From: Armatimonadota bacterium
Lineage (GTDB): Bacteria; Armatimonadota; Fimbriimonadia; Fimbriimonadales; Fimbriimonadaceae
Assembly (NCBI GenBank): GCA_018268315.1
Contig: JAFDWU010000001.1
Coordinates: forward strand, 714,324 to 778,323
Reading direction: 5' to 3'
Length of the DNA stretch: 64,000 nt
Below the pieces are notes generated by a model, which worked only from the letters and a program-made list of their open reading frames with translations, had not been told where the DNA came from and did not search any database. This document shows positions 4,998 through 23,732 of this stretch, piece after piece (the stretch's first letter is position 1; every line of letters starts with the position of its first letter). A program made the position numbers and the translations under genes.

Positions 4998-5073
4998 GGG
5001 GGCATAGCTCAGCTGGGAGAGCATCTGCTTTGCAAGCAGAGGGTCAGGGGTTCGAATCCCCTTGCCTCCACCA
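4998..5073 (+). tRNA. tRNA-Ala (anticodon UGC)
   Basis: Full cloverleaf: acceptor GGGGGCA pairs with TGCCTCC (one G-U), the anticodon stem TCTGC/GCAGA encloses loop TTTGCAA with anticodon TGC at 5031-5033, and the T-arm reads AGGGGTTCGAATCCCCT. The discriminator is A5070 and the CCA end is encoded (5071-5073). A promoter -10 box lies just upstream. Confidence 0.97.
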
Positions 5074-5088
5074 ACCTACAACGCATTC

Positions 5089-5163
5089 GGGCGGTTAGCT
5101 CAGTGGTAGAGCACTACAATGACACTGTAGGGGTCACAGGTTCAAGTCCTGTACCGCCCACCA
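5089..5163 (+). tRNA. tRNA-Val (anticodon GAC)
   Basis: Acceptor GGGCGGT pairs with ACCGCCC; anticodon stem CTACA/TGTAG with loop ATGACAC places GAC at 5121-5123; T-arm ACAGGTTCAAGTCCTGT. Discriminator A5160 and encoded CCA at 5161-5163. The GIY-YIG reading frame runs through the tRNA, so the T-arm is read there as a Gly-Ser-Ser-Pro peptide. Confidence 0.97.
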
Positions 5164-14136: not shown

Positions 14137-14958
14137 ATGAACACATCGTTTTTGCTGCTTCTAGCAATCGCTGGCACTACAAATACTGCGCCTCCACCAC
14201 AAACACGGTTCTTATTCCTCGGAACCTACCATATGCACAACCCACCGGGGGATATGGCAACCGCGAAGATAAAGGACACCCTGAGCCCAGAACGGCAGAA
14301 GGAGATTGCCGAGCTTAACCAAAGCCTTGCAAGATTCCGCCCGACCAAAATTATGATCGAGTCGGATCCTGTCGAAGACCATGCCCGAGCATCCTACGCC
14401 GAATATCTGAAAGGGTCGCATGAGCTTAGCCGAGATGAGGAAGAGCAAGTTGGCTTTCGACTCGCAAAGCAGTTCGGCTTACCCACAATCTATCCTGTCG
14501 ATGACCATCTTCGTATTGATGTTAGTAAGATTTTCCGGGCCGCCAAAGAACAGGGAAAGACAGCCTTTATCGACCACATGCAAAGCGTCATCAGCCGGTC
14601 AACCAAGGTCCTTGCCGAGCTAGACCAAAAATACACCGTTGGCCAGATTTTGGCGGTACTCAACTCACCGGATGCAATGCGGTTGAACCATATGGAGTTC
14701 CTCAGTATGATCGACGTGGACTCTGATCGAGATTTTATTGCCACGGACACAGTTACTAAGTGGTATCAACGAAACCTCCGCATCTTCTCAAATATCAAGA
14801 GGAACGTTGCGCCCGGTGATCGAGTATTAGTTATTTTCGGTTCTGGCCACATGAAGTTCCTCAAAGAATTCTGCTCCGAGACGCCTGGTTTCGAAATCGA
14901 GGATACTTTGAAGTATCTGCCCAAAGCCCCAAAGGTGGATTGGGGTCTCAAAGACTAG
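14137..14958 (+). CDS. DUF5694-family exported protein
   Basis: 273 residues. A short hydrophobic start (MNTSFLLLLAIAGTTNTAPP) suggests export. The mature part opens with RFLFLGTYHMHNPPGDM, the DUF5694 hallmark, continues with RPTKIMIESDP and EYLKG, and closes with GDRVLVIFGSGHMKFL. The Gly-Thr-x-His and Gly-x-Gly-His positions resemble the metal-binding histidines of the EreA/ChaN/TraB-like hydrolase fold, but no activity is established for this family as far as I know. TATAAT ends 8 nt before the ATG and there is no ribosome-binding site, so the message is probably leaderless. It overlaps the convergent next gene by 4 bp; that gene belongs to a similar fold. Confidence 0.8.
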   Translation: MNTSFLLLLAIAGTTNTAPPPQTRFLFLGTYHMHNPPGDMATAKIKDTLSPERQKEIAELNQSLARFRPTKIMIESDPVEDHARASYAEYLKGSHELSRDEEEQVGFRLAKQFGLPTIYPVDDHLRIDVSKIFRAAKEQGKTAFIDHMQSVISRSTKVLAELDQKYTVGQILAVLNSPDAMRLNHMEFLSMIDVDSDRDFIATDTVTKWYQRNLRIFSNIKRNVAPGDRVLVIFGSGHMKFLKEFCSETPGFEIEDTLKYLPKAPKVDWGLKD

Positions 14959-17186: not shown

Positions 17187-18554
17187 ATGCGACGTTGGCA
17201 AACTCGGCGCAACGATTTGAGTAGGAGGGCCCGATGGACCTTGGCCATTCTCTGTTGCCTAGTCTGCTTACCCACCCCGTCACCGGCACAAGAGTCGCTT
17301 GCCAAGACTTACCGCGAACAAGCGCTGGCATTCCGCAAGGAAGCAGAAAAGCTTAGGGCAGAGGCATCCAAGCTCCGATACGATGCCGGAGTTGAACGAG
17401 ATCAAGCAAAAGGTCTGCGGGAACAGTCAAATGCGAGTCAGCAGAAAGGGGACCGCGACGCAGCCGCGCAATTAAGAAGCAAAGCGCAGGCATTGGAGGA
17501 CGATGCCGCCACTAAGGAGGACGATGCAACCACCAAGACAAGGCAATGCGGCAACCTCGAAGCAACCGCGGGCGAGAAAGAATGGAACGCGCGTCGGATT
17601 GAAGAAACGAGCAAGGCGGCCTGCGATCAGCTTTATCGACGTGAGCGGGAAGTTGTCCAATCCGCCATTCAATCGCTTGATTCCTTGAAACAGCACCAAA
17701 AGGCCACGCGTGTTGGTCGCGAAACTATGAGCGTTAGATGGCTCTTTAGCCACGTTCATGATGAAGAACTAAAGATCCTCAGCGAGTCCGATCTCAATGA
17801 CCTTTTCATCAACTATGAAACAAAGCTTGCTGAACTTGAGCGCCAGGTTGAAATAGATAGAGACACCTATGCAACCGGCAGCAGGTCAGAAAAAGACTTT
17901 GCTTGGGATGTGTTCGACCTGGAAAAGGATGTCGTGAACACAATCATGAATGCTGAGTTCACCCTTGTGCCGAAGGGCTACGATACTTTTGAGGCGACTT
18001 GTTACAAGATTGAACGCAAATTGAATGCTGAACTTGCGGCCGCCGAAGAACAACTACGACATTCGAATATTCCAGAGGCCGATAAGGAAGCGCTCCTAAA
18101 AGCTCTGAAAGATCGACAAAGCGAGGACCGACGCAAAGTCTTCATGGAGTTGGCGCCTAAGTATCGAAGCGAGAAGAATCGTGTCGCCTTCTTCCGACGT
18201 GAATGGATGGCTATCGTGACCGAGTTGCACGATCTGGAGGTTCAGTTGAGCAAAGGTGACGACGTGCATCGCTCGATCGCCTCCGAATGGACTAGCCTCT
18301 TCGCCAACCACTTTACGGCTGAGCGCGTCGCCGCAAACAGCGTCGCAATGTTTGCTTTCGGCACCGGAAGCATGGACCGTTTTATCACTCCCTGGGGGTC
18401 AGAATGCGCCTGGCTAAATGCAAAACTATTCCCAGATATCCAAGAGGCTGATGCCCCTGGCGTTCTGCGCATGCAATCCATCGTCGACAACAGCAAGTCT
18501 TTGTTCGTTCAGGGCGGCAAATATGATGGCGCCGCCAAGACAATTCATCCCTAA
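17187..18554 (+). CDS. Exported coiled-coil protein of unknown function
   Basis: 455 residues. A basic start and hydrophobic segment (WTLAILCCLVCLPTPSPAQ) form a signal peptide. The next ~150 residues are strongly helical with short imperfect repeats built of AEKLRAEASKLR, AKGLREQSNAS and AAAQLRSKAQALEDDA-like units, i.e. a long coiled coil; the rest stays charged and helical with few glycines. No enzymatic motif is seen. I do not recognise a family. It is followed after 9 nt by the secreted kinase-like protein and shares its promoter, so the two probably act together; a coiled-coil scaffold or partner role is inference. Confidence 0.78.
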   Translation: MRRWQTRRNDLSRRARWTLAILCCLVCLPTPSPAQESLAKTYREQALAFRKEAEKLRAEASKLRYDAGVERDQAKGLREQSNASQQKGDRDAAAQLRSKAQALEDDAATKEDDATTKTRQCGNLEATAGEKEWNARRIEETSKAACDQLYRREREVVQSAIQSLDSLKQHQKATRVGRETMSVRWLFSHVHDEELKILSESDLNDLFINYETKLAELERQVEIDRDTYATGSRSEKDFAWDVFDLEKDVVNTIMNAEFTLVPKGYDTFEATCYKIERKLNAELAAAEEQLRHSNIPEADKEALLKALKDRQSEDRRKVFMELAPKYRSEKNRVAFFRREWMAIVTELHDLEVQLSKGDDVHRSIASEWTSLFANHFTAERVAANSVAMFAFGTGSMDRFITPWGSECAWLNAKLFPDIQEADAPGVLRMQSIVDNSKSLFVQGGKYDGAAKTIHP

Positions 18555-18563
18555 TTGATCGCA

Positions 18564-21500
18564 ATGCTCCGATTCGTCAGCCTCTTCCTACTCGTCGGCA
18601 TCGCTCAGTCTCTTGTTGCCTACCAAGCTAAGCCTATCCCGCTTTCACACATCCTCGGAAGTTGGGAAGATGTCGAAGGCAAGGTCATCCGAATCTCGAA
18701 AGTAGACGCTAAGACAATCGCCGTGAAGGGGGAGCTCGGGCTGGAGTGGCGGGGTACCTACGAAAACAATAAGCTGCGAGTCACGCTCAAACCGCCTTAC
18801 ACGGAAATGAATCCGGCAATACCGGAATGGGCGAGAAAGCAAGCCGATGGCGCACTGGTGTGGAAGCTCAACCTTGACGCGACCGAAGACCAGGACGGCC
18901 TCAAACTCACCGGCTCGCTCTTGCCTGGAGAGGTTGAGTGGCACGAGGTCATGGACCCCGAAGGAACCGAGAGTTACAAGCGCAGCGCGCGGGTGACGGG
19001 TTCAACCGGGACGGCAATCAAGCTCGTTTACACCAAGGCAAGGGTTTGGCAGATCGTTGATACGTCGGTCCTTGAAGCGAAGGCTGCCAAGTCAACCACA
19101 GCCGGTACGGAGTACGAATACGCGCTTTTCGTTTACGGTCCCTCGTTGCCGCGAACTCGAAAAGAACTCAAACGATTAGTCATCGACACCGACGGCATCC
19201 AGTACCAAGTGCTCGGCGCCACCGAAGATGCACTGTCCCAACATGATGCGGCGCTCCGCAGCCAAGGCTGGAAGGAAGTAAAACGTGGAGTGAGCGCGCA
19301 CGACGCCAATACGATCGATAAGGAGTGGGGATGCCTCCTCCTAAATGCTCGGGTTGACCCGAATGTCATGCCCGGATATCACAAGTTCAGGATCGGGACC
19401 GCCTCATGCGGGTGGTTCCTTGATCAGGGAACGGCGAAAGCAAAACTCACCACCTGGCGCGAAATCGACAATTCACCCGGCGAGCCGACGACCTACGCCT
19501 TCATCGGGGAGCAGTTCCGTGCTCAACTGGATGTGGGGCCAAAGTTTCTCAATCCCACCGTCACCGAGATACCCCTGACAATCGCAGTGAACGGTGCGTT
19601 CATGCTGGCGGATGGCCAGCTAACCGCACGGCTCGATGGCGCGGCCTCTACCGCTTCGAGCATTTATCGATCGCCTGAAATCGAGCTGGTTGGCGACACC
19701 GACCCGCGTCTGCAGCCCTTTAGCAAGATCGCGATGTCAGGTGGCAAGCTGCTGCTTGCCGCAGAACCAGGAGACAATATTCAGATAGGAATCAGCGACC
19801 GGAAGGCTTTCCTCTGCCCGGACCCGGTGGCCAACGTTTTTGTTTCGGCGGACAGGGATGGGCCATGGATTGAAGCGCTTAGGCGCGCGGCAGCGGCCGA
19901 TGGACTGTCGACAAAGATCGATCTGCGCGCCTCGAGAGGCAAGACTGTCGAGGAAGTATCCAACACCCTCATCACGCAGGTTGCCTTCTATTTGCGATTG
20001 CAGTATCTCTCGCCCCTCGTTCGATTTATCCAGTACTGCTATGGATATACGGATGCTGAAATGGCACATGGCGATGTCATCGTGCGCCACCGGATAAAGC
20101 TTGGCGAACACGCGGCCGCCCTTCTGCTGAGATCTGAATTCGTCGAGCAGATGCAGCCAATCGTCGATACCTTAAACGCGATAAAGACGGACCAGGACAA
20201 GCTGGCATACCTTGATGCCTGTTCGGTTGATCTCCTAAATCCTAAATCGGCTCTCTTCAACGTCGAGTTCGTTGATCCCGAGTCAACTTCAGCTGTGGAC
20301 AGCGCTACTGTCTCTCCTCGAAGTTATGAGCTCGGCAACGTCTACGGTTTCGCGGCCACAAACCCAAGCCGGAACCGGCTTCTCATCGCGGGATTTGACG
20401 CGTATCGCAAGATGGTCCTTGACGCCCAAAAGAAGGCGATCGCCATCCCAGATAACGACATCCAGGGCCTTTTCGCTTTAACCGGCGATTGCTTTGGCCC
20501 CGTGATCAAAACACTGATCCCCAAGCTCATGCGCCCCGTTGTCGACAGCGCGGGCGGAATCACCTGGCAACCTGACGGCATCGCCCGAAAGGAAGTCCAG
20601 AACATGGCTACATCTTGGGAAGCCATTAAGGCTCAAAAGGAACTGAAGTCCATTGACACTGAGGTTGTAATTGCAGCGGCAACCTGCGCCCTTCAGGGAG
20701 CCGGGCAGTTTGTTAAGCTCGCCGCCCGGATCGCGGCGGCGGCAAACCTTGCGTCCAATGTTTACTCAAGTTACAGTTCGCTCGCAAATGTGAGCGCTGA
20801 TTCACAGAAGGAAATGTTCGCGATCGGATCCTCCAAGATTCTGGGTAGCGATCGCTTCGAGATGGTTCAACAACAGAAGACGCCGGCATGGGCGGTGGCT
20901 CTAAACCTGCTGAATCTTGGCATAAGCACAAAAGGCGACCTTGCGACTCTCATGGGCCGGACACCATCGGGCGAGGCGATGGGCAAAGCCGCCGCTCTTG
21001 CACAAGCGGTTAAGTCTGATGGAGTTGCCGCAATAACCCGAATGAAGCCGGAGGAACGCGCGAAGTTTCTAATCGCTGCGGCTGGAGTTGAGCGCAAGGC
21101 TGCCAAAACAGGGGTTAACGGGCTCACGGCAAATGAACAAGAAATCTACGCCGGCATGAAGAGCTTGAGCAGCGAGTTGGAACAGAAGGGCGCCTTTAAG
21201 ATTGATATCGAACCTGGTCAGGAAACGCGAGCTATCCGAGCCGATGCCGAAACTGTCCATGTGCCCAAGAAGGAACTCTTGCCCGAGACTCCATCCCCAA
21301 GCCCTCAACCCGAGCAGGCGCCTGCCGCAGAGCCCGTCGAACCTACTGAGCCAAACACGGAATACACGTACTCCGTTAAGTATGGAGATCGGCGATTCCT
21401 GGCAAACGTTAAGGAACTACGCCAGCTGAAGAGGCTACAGCGGGAAATTTTGCCTTCAGGATTTCCGAGCGGACCCGGACCATGGAAGTGCCAGGGAGAA

Positions 21501-22334
21501 ACTTTTCAGCTTGGAACGCTCCTGGGTGAAGGAGAATTCATGGCAGTGTTTGATGAGCTCAACACGCCAAACGCCATAAAGATCTGCAAATGGATTGAAG
21601 GGCAACTACTCGGCTCAATCTACGAAGATATGGCGCTGGCTCAGAAGCTCTTAAAAGACGCTCAAATTCCACATTTGGAAGTGCAGATTGGCCCGCCGCC
21701 AAGAGCCGGTGAATCCTTCTGGGTTCGCCAACCTAAAATGGACTCCTCGATGGTTATTCCGAGAGCGGGCCAACTTCTAAGTCGGCCCCAACGCAAGGCG
21801 GTCATGAACCTGATCGAAAAGCTTTACGATGCCAAGCTCGTTGCGGAAGACCTGAAGACAAACAACATCTTTCTGAAACAACTTGGAAACGGGGATTGGG
21901 TCGCGGGAATCCTTGACGTGGACCGGGTCTGCAAGTGGGGCGAATTTACGCCCCAAATCAACGGCGCGCTCGAGATTATGGAGGATGGCAGGAAAGGCTT
22001 GAACTGCATCATGGCAGAGGCTCCGGAGAACCTGCAAAATGGGAAGCGTCTGCTCCGATACGACGAGTTTTGGAAGGCACAAATGGAAAAAGGCGCCTGG
22101 CTTCGATTCGGAGACAACGGAGACCGGCAAACCTTTATGAACTCGGTGTTAGATGCTGAAGAGGTGTTCAGCGAATTGAAGTTTATGAAAGGCCGTAACG
22201 TTAAGATTGAACTGAAGGGCCGTCTTCCCTATAAGGCGAAGCCCGCGAACTCAAATCAGTTGGCCGATATGTGGACAAATCTAGGCGATAGAATCATGGT
22301 TAAGCCAGTGCATTCCTTCGCTTTCGCTCATTAA
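18564..22334 (+). CDS. Large exported protein with C-terminal protein-kinase-like domain
   Basis: 1256 residues from ATG 18564 (a TTG at 18555 adds three). Residues 1-22 are a signal peptide (MLRFVSLFLLVGIAQSLVAY). About 25-140 is beta-rich with a lipocalin-like look (LGSWEDVEGKVIRISKVD); a large unassigned region follows, then Ala-rich helices at about 690-880 and a Pro/Glu-rich linker at about 905-935. The last ~280 residues read as a kinase fold: glycine loop GEGEFMAVF (G988, G990, V995), Lys1006 in AIK, candidate helix-C Glu1021, catalytic loop AEDLKTNNIF with Asp1096 and Asn1101, and a DVD (Asp1118) in place of DFG. All chemical residues are present; HRD is AED. A kinase with an export signal is unusual. 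Lipid, sugar or small-molecule substrates are as possible as protein. Confidence 0.75.
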   Translation: MLRFVSLFLLVGIAQSLVAYQAKPIPLSHILGSWEDVEGKVIRISKVDAKTIAVKGELGLEWRGTYENNKLRVTLKPPYTEMNPAIPEWARKQADGALVWKLNLDATEDQDGLKLTGSLLPGEVEWHEVMDPEGTESYKRSARVTGSTGTAIKLVYTKARVWQIVDTSVLEAKAAKSTTAGTEYEYALFVYGPSLPRTRKELKRLVIDTDGIQYQVLGATEDALSQHDAALRSQGWKEVKRGVSAHDANTIDKEWGCLLLNARVDPNVMPGYHKFRIGTASCGWFLDQGTAKAKLTTWREIDNSPGEPTTYAFIGEQFRAQLDVGPKFLNPTVTEIPLTIAVNGAFMLADGQLTARLDGAASTASSIYRSPEIELVGDTDPRLQPFSKIAMSGGKLLLAAEPGDNIQIGISDRKAFLCPDPVANVFVSADRDGPWIEALRRAAAADGLSTKIDLRASRGKTVEEVSNTLITQVAFYLRLQYLSPLVRFIQYCYGYTDAEMAHGDVIVRHRIKLGEHAAALLLRSEFVEQMQPIVDTLNAIKTDQDKLAYLDACSVDLLNPKSALFNVEFVDPESTSAVDSATVSPRSYELGNVYGFAATNPSRNRLLIAGFDAYRKMVLDAQKKAIAIPDNDIQGLFALTGDCFGPVIKTLIPKLMRPVVDSAGGITWQPDGIARKEVQNMATSWEAIKAQKELKSIDTEVVIAAATCALQGAGQFVKLAARIAAAANLASNVYSSYSSLANVSADSQKEMFAIGSSKILGSDRFEMVQQQKTPAWAVALNLLNLGISTKGDLATLMGRTPSGEAMGKAAALAQAVKSDGVAAITRMKPEERAKFLIAAAGVERKAAKTGVNGLTANEQEIYAGMKSLSSELEQKGAFKIDIEPGQETRAIRADAETVHVPKKELLPETPSPSPQPEQAPAAEPVEPTEPNTEYTYSVKYGDRRFLANVKELRQLKRLQREILPSGFPSGPGPWKCQGETFQLGTLLGEGEFMAVFDELNTPNAIKICKWIEGQLLGSIYEDMALAQKLLKDAQIPHLEVQIGPPPRAGESFWVRQPKMDSSMVIPRAGQLLSRPQRKAVMNLIEKLYDAKLVAEDLKTNNIFLKQLGNGDWVAGILDVDRVCKWGEFTPQINGALEIMEDGRKGLNCIMAEAPENLQNGKRLLRYDEFWKAQMEKGAWLRFGDNGDRQTFMNSVLDAEEVFSELKFMKGRNVKIELKGRLPYKAKPANSNQLADMWTNLGDRIMVKPVHSFAFAH

Positions 22335-22347
22335 ACAAGGACTACCC

Positions 22348-23031
22348 ATGCTCAAAACCATTAGCTCATTTGCGCTTGCTCTTATTGTTTCATCAGCCTT
22401 TTCGCAGACGGCGACGATGAATGGACAAGTCATCTCGTCGAACGTAAAGTTCATTAACGGCAAACCGTACGTTGCCTTGGAAGACATTGCGAGAAGCAAC
22501 GGCATGCGCGTGGTCAAGAAGGGTAACCGGTATATCCTGGTTGCCGCCGGAGGAGCAAACGAGGTGAAGGGCAGGTTTACCGGCAAGATCGGCGACGACC
22601 TGTTCACTGGCGATTGGCGGTTTAAAGTTCTTTCGGTTCAAGAAGCCGGCCAATACAATCACGTCTTTGGCGATGCTGAGCGCGTCGAGCCAAAGGGGCC
22701 CGGCAACAAGCTGGTGATCGTTCGCTGCCAGCTGCGAAATGGACACCGAGTGCCAGAAGACATGCACTTTACAAATTCATTTGCCTCTAATTCGCACTCC
22801 GCATTGACGGACACCGACTCTCATACGTATCCGATCTATGATTACGACGTCCACTATACGCATTACAAGTGGGCGGCCGAAGTCCTGCCCGGCGCAACCA
22901 TCGACTTCGCCCTGGTGTTCGAAGTCCCCGGCAGTGCGAAGCCGAGAGACCTCGTCTATTCCATCTTCCGGTACGACGACCGCGGGGATTCGAAGAAGAC
23001 AACCGACGTTCGAATTGCCTTGCACAAATAG
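22348..23031 (+). CDS. Exported protein with amine-oxidase-N-like and DUF4352-like domains
   Basis: 227 residues; AAGGA precedes the ATG and the gene follows the kinase-like gene by 13 nt, so it is in the same operon. A signal peptide (MLKTISSFALALIVSSAFSQ) is followed at about 30-70 by VKFINGKPYVALEDIARSNG and RYILVAAGG, the two-strand/helix pattern of the copper-amine-oxidase N-terminal domain, which is a common wall- or surface-binding module. The remainder (GDWRFKVLSVQEAG, GNKLVIVRCQLRNG, ATIDFALVFEVPGSAKPRDL) is an Ig-like sandwich of the DUF4352/telokin-like kind, usually found in extracytoplasmic lipoproteins. No catalytic residues are seen; a binding or scaffolding role beside its neighbours is likely. 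Confidence 0.78.
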   Translation: MLKTISSFALALIVSSAFSQTATMNGQVISSNVKFINGKPYVALEDIARSNGMRVVKKGNRYILVAAGGANEVKGRFTGKIGDDLFTGDWRFKVLSVQEAGQYNHVFGDAERVEPKGPGNKLVIVRCQLRNGHRVPEDMHFTNSFASNSHSALTDTDSHTYPIYDYDVHYTHYKWAAEVLPGATIDFALVFEVPGSAKPRDLVYSIFRYDDRGDSKKTTDVRIALHK

Positions 23032-23129
23032 CCTCCTCCGATCGCTTGCAGCTGACCAACTCATAGCGTTTGGGCATTTCCCTAAGCGCGTACAAGGGTA
23101 AATGAAGGGGTGCGAGGGACAATGAATTC

Positions 23130-23732
23130 ATGTTGTTCCTCCTCGCAATCCTTTGCATGGCTTCCTCCGAAGTCCACCCACACTCGTTTGCGGTAACGAA
23201 CGCTTCTTACGACGCCAGCGTGACCGCCCAGCCATCTCAAGACGTCGTCGTCGTAAAGGGCGTAGTCACCCACAAGAACTTTGGGACCAAGGACGGCAAA
23301 CCCTACGTGAAGATGTCGCTCACCAACGTCACGTTCAAGCAGGGCAAAGCCGCTGCCGCCCCCAAGAAGAGCGCCGTTCGCGAATATAAGATTGATCCGC
23401 ACGGCATTCCCTATGAGTCTCATGCCAGTGGCCGCGAGGAGCTTCTTGTTATCTCAAGTTCGGCCGGTTACCTGCCGGACGGCACGGTGGAGCTCGATAA
23501 GGAGTTCCCTGTTAAGTGGAGTTCTGGTGAAACTTCCATCGATGGCACAGGGGTTGCTGTCATGGAAAAGGATCGTGTTGTCGTCAAGATCAAGGGAACC
23601 TATGTTTCCGGCGGAACCTACAAGTATCACTCCGAGTGTTACTATGATAAAGCCGGTAATGTAGAGGCCCAGGACATTTTGATGGATGATGGGTCTATGC
23701 CTCTCACGTTCAAAGTCCGGCGTAAGCATTAG
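23130..23732 (+). CDS. Exported protein of unknown function
   Basis: 200 residues with a short signal peptide (MLFLLAILCMASSEV). The mature protein is mostly beta strands with many Gly, Lys and Val (DVVVVKGVVTHKNFGTKDGK, YVKMSLTNVTFKQGKAAA, RVVVKIKGTYVSGG) and no cysteine pairs or catalytic motif apart from a single Cys. I do not recognise the family. It begins about 100 nt after the DUF4352-like gene and may extend the same exported cluster. GAGGG upstream may serve as ribosome-binding site, at a rather long distance from the ATG. Confidence 0.6.
   Translation: MLFLLAILCMASSEVHPHSFAVTNASYDASVTAQPSQDVVVVKGVVTHKNFGTKDGKPYVKMSLTNVTFKQGKAAAAPKKSAVREYKIDPHGIPYESHASGREELLVISSSAGYLPDGTVELDKEFPVKWSSGETSIDGTGVAVMEKDRVVVKIKGTYVSGGTYKYHSECYYDKAGNVEAQDILMDDGSMPLTFKVRRKH

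What the first reader, a model, noticed from the sequence alone, without database searches (positions are those of the whole stretch)
18564..22334. Exported giant protein with a complete protein-kinase-like catalytic domain
A clear signal peptide (1-22) leads a 1256-residue protein whose last ~280 residues show, in correct order and spacing, a glycine loop (G988-x-G990), an AIK lysine (Lys1006), a helix-C glutamate candidate (Glu1021), a catalytic loop D-L-K-x-x-N (Asp1096, Asn1101) and a metal-binding Asp in DVD (Asp1118). Bacterial Ser/Thr kinases normally face the cytosol; secreted kinases with an export signal are known mainly in eukaryotes (Fam20C-like) and in injected effectors. The HRD histidine/arginine pair is replaced (AED), so it is a divergent family. 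Preceded by a Pro/Glu linker and a helical Ala-rich region it could also be a toxin-like C-terminal domain. I know of no described system of this make-up.
Basis: partly seen in the sequence, partly recalled or inferred. Interest (0 to 1): 0.85.

Follow-up and report, generated by a model that had tools for sequence, protein, structure and literature searches.

The report
Giant exported protein with kinase-fold tail
This bacterial gene encodes a very large exported protein ending in a divergent protein-kinase-fold domain, and it belongs to a rare, so far unnamed family of such giants scattered over at least four bacterial phyla, which hints that some bacteria send a phosphate-transferring enzyme out of the cell, perhaps as a weapon.

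Summary
Window 18564-22334 encodes 1256 aa with a signal-peptide-like N-terminus and, in order, G988-x-G990, AIK1006, D1096-L-K-x-x-N1101 and D1118-V-D. A strict kinase pattern never arose in 200,000 shuffles. Standard searches miss it: no Pfam or NCBIfam hit passes its cut-off, and no relative turned up in 291 genomes of its phylum. A degenerate catalytic-motif scan of all genomes, followed by profile searches, found five more copies of the domain in four proteins (Verrucomicrobia, two copies in one 2649-aa protein; a genome of the same phylum, 4015-aa frame; a planctomycete-phylum genome, 2022-aa frame; Rokubacteria). The Verrucomicrobia protein is homologous through the body as well. GxG, Lys and D...N are kept in 6/6 copies and the metal Asp in 5/6. 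The family profile recovers only protein kinases among the 60 best PDB hits. All three complete relatives also start with a signal-peptide-like segment and lack a second clear membrane helix. It is therefore a real exported kinase-superfamily domain family. Not met or weak: helix-C Glu1021 does not align, "toxin tip" holds for only part of the family, and no immunity gene was found. Activity and site of action are inference.

The parts
18564..22334 (+). gene of the exported 1256-aa protein with kinase-like C-terminus
   Evidence: full-length relative in Verrucomicrobia, blastp E 7e-29
18564..18629 (+). signal-peptide-like segment, residues 1-22 (MLRFVSLFLLVGIAQSLVAYQA)
   Evidence: KD 1.96, only segment above 1.6; similar N-termini in the three complete relatives; no SignalP available
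19125..21359 (+). body, residues 188-932, homologous to the body of the Verrucomicrobia protein (23% over 824 columns); no known family
20652..20783 (+). Ala-rich mildly hydrophobic helical stretch, residues 697-740, with hydrophobic counterpart in the relative; below the usual threshold for a membrane helix
21264..21359 (+). Pro/Glu-rich linker, residues 901-932
   Evidence: sequence; Pro-rich linkers precede the domain in the Verrucomicrobia and Rokubacteria relatives too
21486..22253 (+). kinase-superfamily domain, residues 975-1230
   Evidence: alignments A3-A6; PDB profile search; Foldseek
21525..21533 (+). glycine loop G988-E-G990
   Evidence: invariant GxG in 6/6 copies
21579..21581 (+). 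ATP-lysine Lys1006 (AIK)
   Evidence: aligned with VVK/AVK/VIK of all relatives in L-INS-i alignment; whole-domain MAFFT shifts it by 3 residues
21849..21866 (+). catalytic loop D1096-L-K-T-N-N1101
   Evidence: D and N invariant in 6/6 copies
21915..21923 (+). metal-binding D1118-V-D1120
   Evidence: first Asp in 5/6 copies, Glu in the planctomycete copy
17187..18554 (+). upstream exported coiled-coil protein (455 aa), 9 nt before the kinase gene; its C-terminal part is the N-terminal module of exported LCAT-like hydrolases in relatives
22348..23031 (+). downstream exported protein, weak DUF4352 match, 13 nt after the kinase gene
   Evidence: below cut-off
23130..23732 (+). downstream small protein with hydrophobic N-terminus, no family

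Best explanation
The gene makes a Sec-exported giant protein whose last ~260 residues form a divergent member of the protein-kinase superfamily, closer in its catalytic loop to Kdo/YrbL-type and other eukaryotic-like kinases than to any named exported kinase. Shown here: the motif set, its conservation in a cross-phylum family, the conserved export-type N-terminus, and one case of full-body homology. Inferred: the domain binds ATP-Mg through Lys1006 and Asp1118 and transfers phosphate using Asp1096. Since ATP is scarce outside the cytosol, the domain most likely works as an effector-like module delivered into, or acting on, another cell after outer-membrane export. The helical Ala-rich stretch and Pro/Glu linker would serve as delivery and spacer regions, in the manner of polymorphic toxins.
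For: Conserved GxG, Lys, D...N (6/6) and metal Asp (5/6). All 60 best PDB profile hits are kinases. Nine of ten weak whole-genome hits carry kinase motifs, six of them canonical HRD...DFG. Foldseek top 50 all kinase-domain structures despite a poor model. Signal-peptide-like N-terminus in all four complete proteins and no second clear TM helix. The same domain is fused to bodies not alike by blastp and spread sporadically: 1/291, 2/388, 1/246 and 1/95 genomes.
Against: No confident structure. Helix-C Glu not established and HR of HRD absent. In the planctomycete protein and in the first Verrucomicrobia copy the domain is internal, not a tip. No cytosolic immunity-like gene beside it. No delivery marker. 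ATP supply outside the cytosol is unexplained.
Confidence: 0.5

Rival explanations
1. Exported pseudokinase: the kinase fold is kept as a binding or scaffold domain in the periplasm or at the surface, with little or no phosphotransfer.
For: No ATP expected there; HRD His/Arg missing; planctomycete copy has Glu for the metal Asp; helix-C Glu uncertain.
Against: GxG, Lys, catalytic Asp and Asn are kept in all six copies at only ~20% overall identity, which a pure scaffold would not need.
Confidence: 0.2
2. Active kinase acting on the producer's own periplasmic or surface proteins, glycans or lipids, with a donor supplied or exported locally.
For: Whole gene row 17187-23732 looks exported; a neighbour module is shared with exported LCAT-like lipid hydrolases; best Pfam leads are YrbL and Kdo, the latter a lipopolysaccharide kinase family (both below cut-off).
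Against: No known ATP source outside; distribution is sporadic, as for accessory effectors rather than envelope housekeeping.
Confidence: 0.2
3. Membrane-spanning receptor-like kinase: body outside, Ala-rich stretch 697-740 crosses the membrane, kinase in the cytosol.
For: Hydrophobic stretch lies between body and linker in both full-length relatives (best window 1.40 in the window protein, 1.49 in Verrucomicrobia).
Against: Below the usual 1.6 threshold; the 4015-aa and planctomycete relatives show no clear helix before the domain.
Confidence: 0.1

Closest known systems
Tox-Peptide Kinase of polymorphic toxins (PMC3482391)
   Same: kinase-superfamily domain in exported, polymorphic-toxin-related proteins; its DxHxEN motif resembles DGHIEN of the Verrucomicrobia copy
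   Different: described from Firmicutes with PVC-SS proteases and related to lantibiotic synthetase kinases; none of the six copies hit any lantibiotic-synthetase model in Pfam up to E 1; window copy has DLKTNN
Kdo/WaaP and YrbL families (PF06293, PF10707)
   Same: best Pfam leads, in register over catalytic loop and DxD(R)
   Different: E 0.02-0.2, below curated cut-offs; known members lack export signal and giant body (general knowledge)
Canonical bacterial Ser/Thr kinases (Hanks type)
   Same: Gly loop, Lys, D-L-K-x-x-N and the metal Asp in the same order; family profile matches them
   Different: no HRD His/Arg, DVD instead of DFG, no clear APE, exported
Fam20C / VLK secretory kinases
   Same: kinase fold acting outside the cytosol
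   Different: eukaryotic secretory pathway; not among the PDB sequence matches listed

Membership tests
Protein-kinase superfamily | glycine-rich loop, GxG | tested here: met
   6/6 copies
Protein-kinase superfamily | ATP-binding lysine in strand 3 | tested here: met
   Lys in 6/6 after N-lobe realignment; automatic whole-domain alignment is shifted by three residues in the window copy
Protein-kinase superfamily | helix-C glutamate | tested here: inconclusive
   E/E/E/D/N in relatives, Glu1021 offset
Protein-kinase superfamily | catalytic Asp and Asn | tested here: met
   6/6
Protein-kinase superfamily | metal-binding Asp | tested here: met
   5/6, window Asp1118 included
Protein-kinase superfamily | two-lobe fold | tested here: inconclusive
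   pLDDT 39.6; core hits only kinases by Foldseek, best E 0.007
Hanks-type Ser/Thr kinase (ePK) | HRD, DFG and APE motifs | tested here: not met
   AED, DVD, no APE seen
Kdo or YrbL family | score above Pfam gathering cut-off | tested here: not met
   17.3 vs 31.5 and 13.9 vs 21.3 bits at best, on a trimmed 100-aa piece
Polymorphic toxin | exported chassis with variable C-terminal enzymatic domain | tested here: inconclusive
   different bodies share the domain, but two of six copies are internal
Polymorphic toxin | adjacent immunity gene | tested here: not met
   next genes downstream look exported, no shared partner among loci
Exported protein | Sec signal peptide | tested here: met
   hydropathy and small-residue ends in four complete proteins; no dedicated predictor on hand

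The most novel reading that the evidence does not exclude
An unnamed family of giant secreted bacterial proteins carries active kinase-superfamily domains that phosphorylate targets outside the producing cell, delivered as interbacterial effectors, in some lineages perhaps through a CsgG-type outer-membrane pore encoded next door.
Probability: 0.3. Interest if true: 0.85.

Novelty: new variant of a known kind. Interest (0 to 1): 0.62.

Why it matters
Kinases that leave a bacterial cell by a Sec signal are hardly known outside injected effectors. A conserved family across at least four phyla would raise directly testable questions: where does the ATP come from, what is phosphorylated, and is this another class of interbacterial weapon. 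It also shows that motif-guided scanning finds kinase-fold families that current profile libraries miss.

Tried and rejected
Single-sequence fold of the tail: pLDDT 31.6, useless. Single-sequence homologue scans of genomes, plasmids, phages and viral contigs: nothing. Weak tblastn hits in the phylum (L003-L008) are of marginal E-value; the one read, L005, is chance. Most of the 19 motif-scan loci are out of frame or unrelated proteins. PADLOC and PHROGs: nothing meaningful. Viral contigs with the family alignment: no relative. CsgG as a universal partner: rejected, found at 2 of 5 loci and not in the flanks of the other three searched by a two-sequence profile. Sequence similarity of the window protein to the hydrolase proteins: none worth keeping.

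Full report
OBSERVATION. The gene at 18564-22334 (+) encodes 1256 aa. The N-terminus MLRFVSLFLLVGIAQSLVAYQA is the only segment of the protein above a Kyte-Doolittle mean of 1.6. The listed catalytic residues are at the stated positions. A strict kinase pattern (GxGx[FYA]xxV ... [AVIL][IVAL]K ... Dx[KNHS]xxN ... DxD/G) is met once, at 988-1120. In 200,000 shuffles of the last 296 aa it never appeared, and a looser version appeared 73 times. The pattern was written after seeing the sequence, so the shuffle figure is a guide, and the relatives below are the real test.

FIRST SEARCHES. Nothing known matches above its cut-off: Pfam gives YrbL (E 0.02) and Kdo (E 0.2), both kinase-fold families, over the catalytic loop only; NCBIfam, PHROGs and PADLOC give nothing useful. 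No relative was found in 61 relatives, 113 genomes of the order or 291 of the phylum, nor in plasmids, phages or genome contigs by single-sequence search.

FINDING THE FAMILY. A degenerate DNA pattern for N-I-[FY]-[FL]-x(6-16)-A-G-[IVM]-L-D-x-D, built from the window sequence and a recollection of similar sequences, was run over 257 Gb of genomes. Of 19 loci, two encode true relatives: Verrucomicrobia UBA6056 (blastp E 1.7e-11 for the domain) and a Rokubacteria contig (E 3e-5). The Verrucomicrobia protein is also homologous over the body (residues 188-932, E 7e-29, 23% identity). Its full length is 2649 aa with a second copy of the domain at its C-terminus. Profile searches added a 4015-aa frame in another genome of the Verrucomicrobia sample (E 1.3e-24) and a 2022-aa frame in a genome of the planctomycete phylum (E 5e-23). 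Counts: 1 of 291, 2 of 388, 1 of 246 and 1 of 95 genomes, so the domain is rare and scattered. Phyla of the other genomes are inferred from the titles of the loci used as search centres; the window's phylum is unnamed here, and is taken as distinct because its held size (291 genomes) differs from the others.

KINASE IDENTITY. In six copies GxG, the catalytic Asp and the Asn are invariant and the metal Asp is kept in five. The lysine aligns in six after realigning the N-lobe; the automatic alignment places Lys1009 there instead, a shift of three. The helix-C Glu is not established. The three-copy and six-copy profiles hit only kinases among the 60 best PDB sequences listed (best E 0.01 and 0.0054). 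The three-copy profile also finds, at E 6e-6 to 6e-4 in whole genomes, ten loci, of which nine carry kinase motifs, six of them HRD...DFG Ser/Thr kinases and three Kdo-like HGD. AlphaFold2 with three sequences gave pLDDT 39.6, with the ordered parts around the catalytic loop at roughly 60-73. Foldseek's top 50 are all kinase-domain structures, best E 0.007, most over 50-150 columns. With so poor a model this is weak support.

EXPORT AND ARCHITECTURE. All four proteins with a complete N-terminus begin with a hydrophobic segment ending in a small-residue site, and none has a second segment above 1.6. In the Verrucomicrobia protein the N-terminal segment itself is weaker (1.02). A dedicated signal-peptide predictor was not available. 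Four copies lie at the C-terminal end (window, Rokubacteria, 4015-aa protein, second Verrucomicrobia copy), two are internal. By blastp the 4015-aa and planctomycete proteins share only the kinase region with the window protein, so the domain is found on different exported bodies.

NEIGHBOURS. The upstream gene (17187-18554, 9 nt away) is an exported coiled-coil protein. Its second half is the N-terminal module of ~860-aa exported LCAT-like hydrolases in three relatives; the LCAT match was tested for two of them. Downstream genes have signal-like N-termini. CsgG-family genes adjoin the giants in the Rokubacteria and 4015-aa loci but not the others.

MECHANISM. Shown: a conserved kinase-superfamily domain in exported giants. 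Inferred: catalysis, and action in or on another cell, because ATP is scarce outside the cytosol and because of the shared domain on varied bodies. Against the toxin reading: internal copies, no immunity gene, no common delivery gene. Pseudokinase, own-envelope kinase and receptor-like topology remain open.

KNOWN KINDS. Polymorphic toxins with a lantibiotic-synthetase-type kinase domain are on record (PMC3482391, read), so an exported kinase-like domain is not without precedent. The present family matched none of the models searched and no paper found describes it (a limited open-access library).

Noticed in passing
window 17187-18554; L012 8038-10632; L013 9143-11734; L018 7104-9539: An N-terminal module shared by exported LCAT-like hydrolases in three relatives stands alone as a separate exported protein directly upstream of the kinase gene; found in only 4 of 291 genomes of the phylum.
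   Followed up: partly
L026 3205-4230; L071 33-1103: CsgG-family genes lie next to the kinase-bearing giants in two phyla, in one case with an exported vWA protein between; a possible outer-membrane exit route.
   Followed up: partly
L059 2730-10679: The Verrucomicrobia giant has two kinase-like domains with a stretch between them that reads like a nucleotidyltransferase motif (FGSTNLDSDYDLS); upstream lies a 1624-aa ankyrin, beta-helix and TPR protein.
   Followed up: no
window 14137-14958: DUF5694 protein (E 7e-44) near the cluster, function unknown.
   Followed up: no
window 4998-5160: Two adjacent tRNA genes upstream of the region.
   Followed up: no
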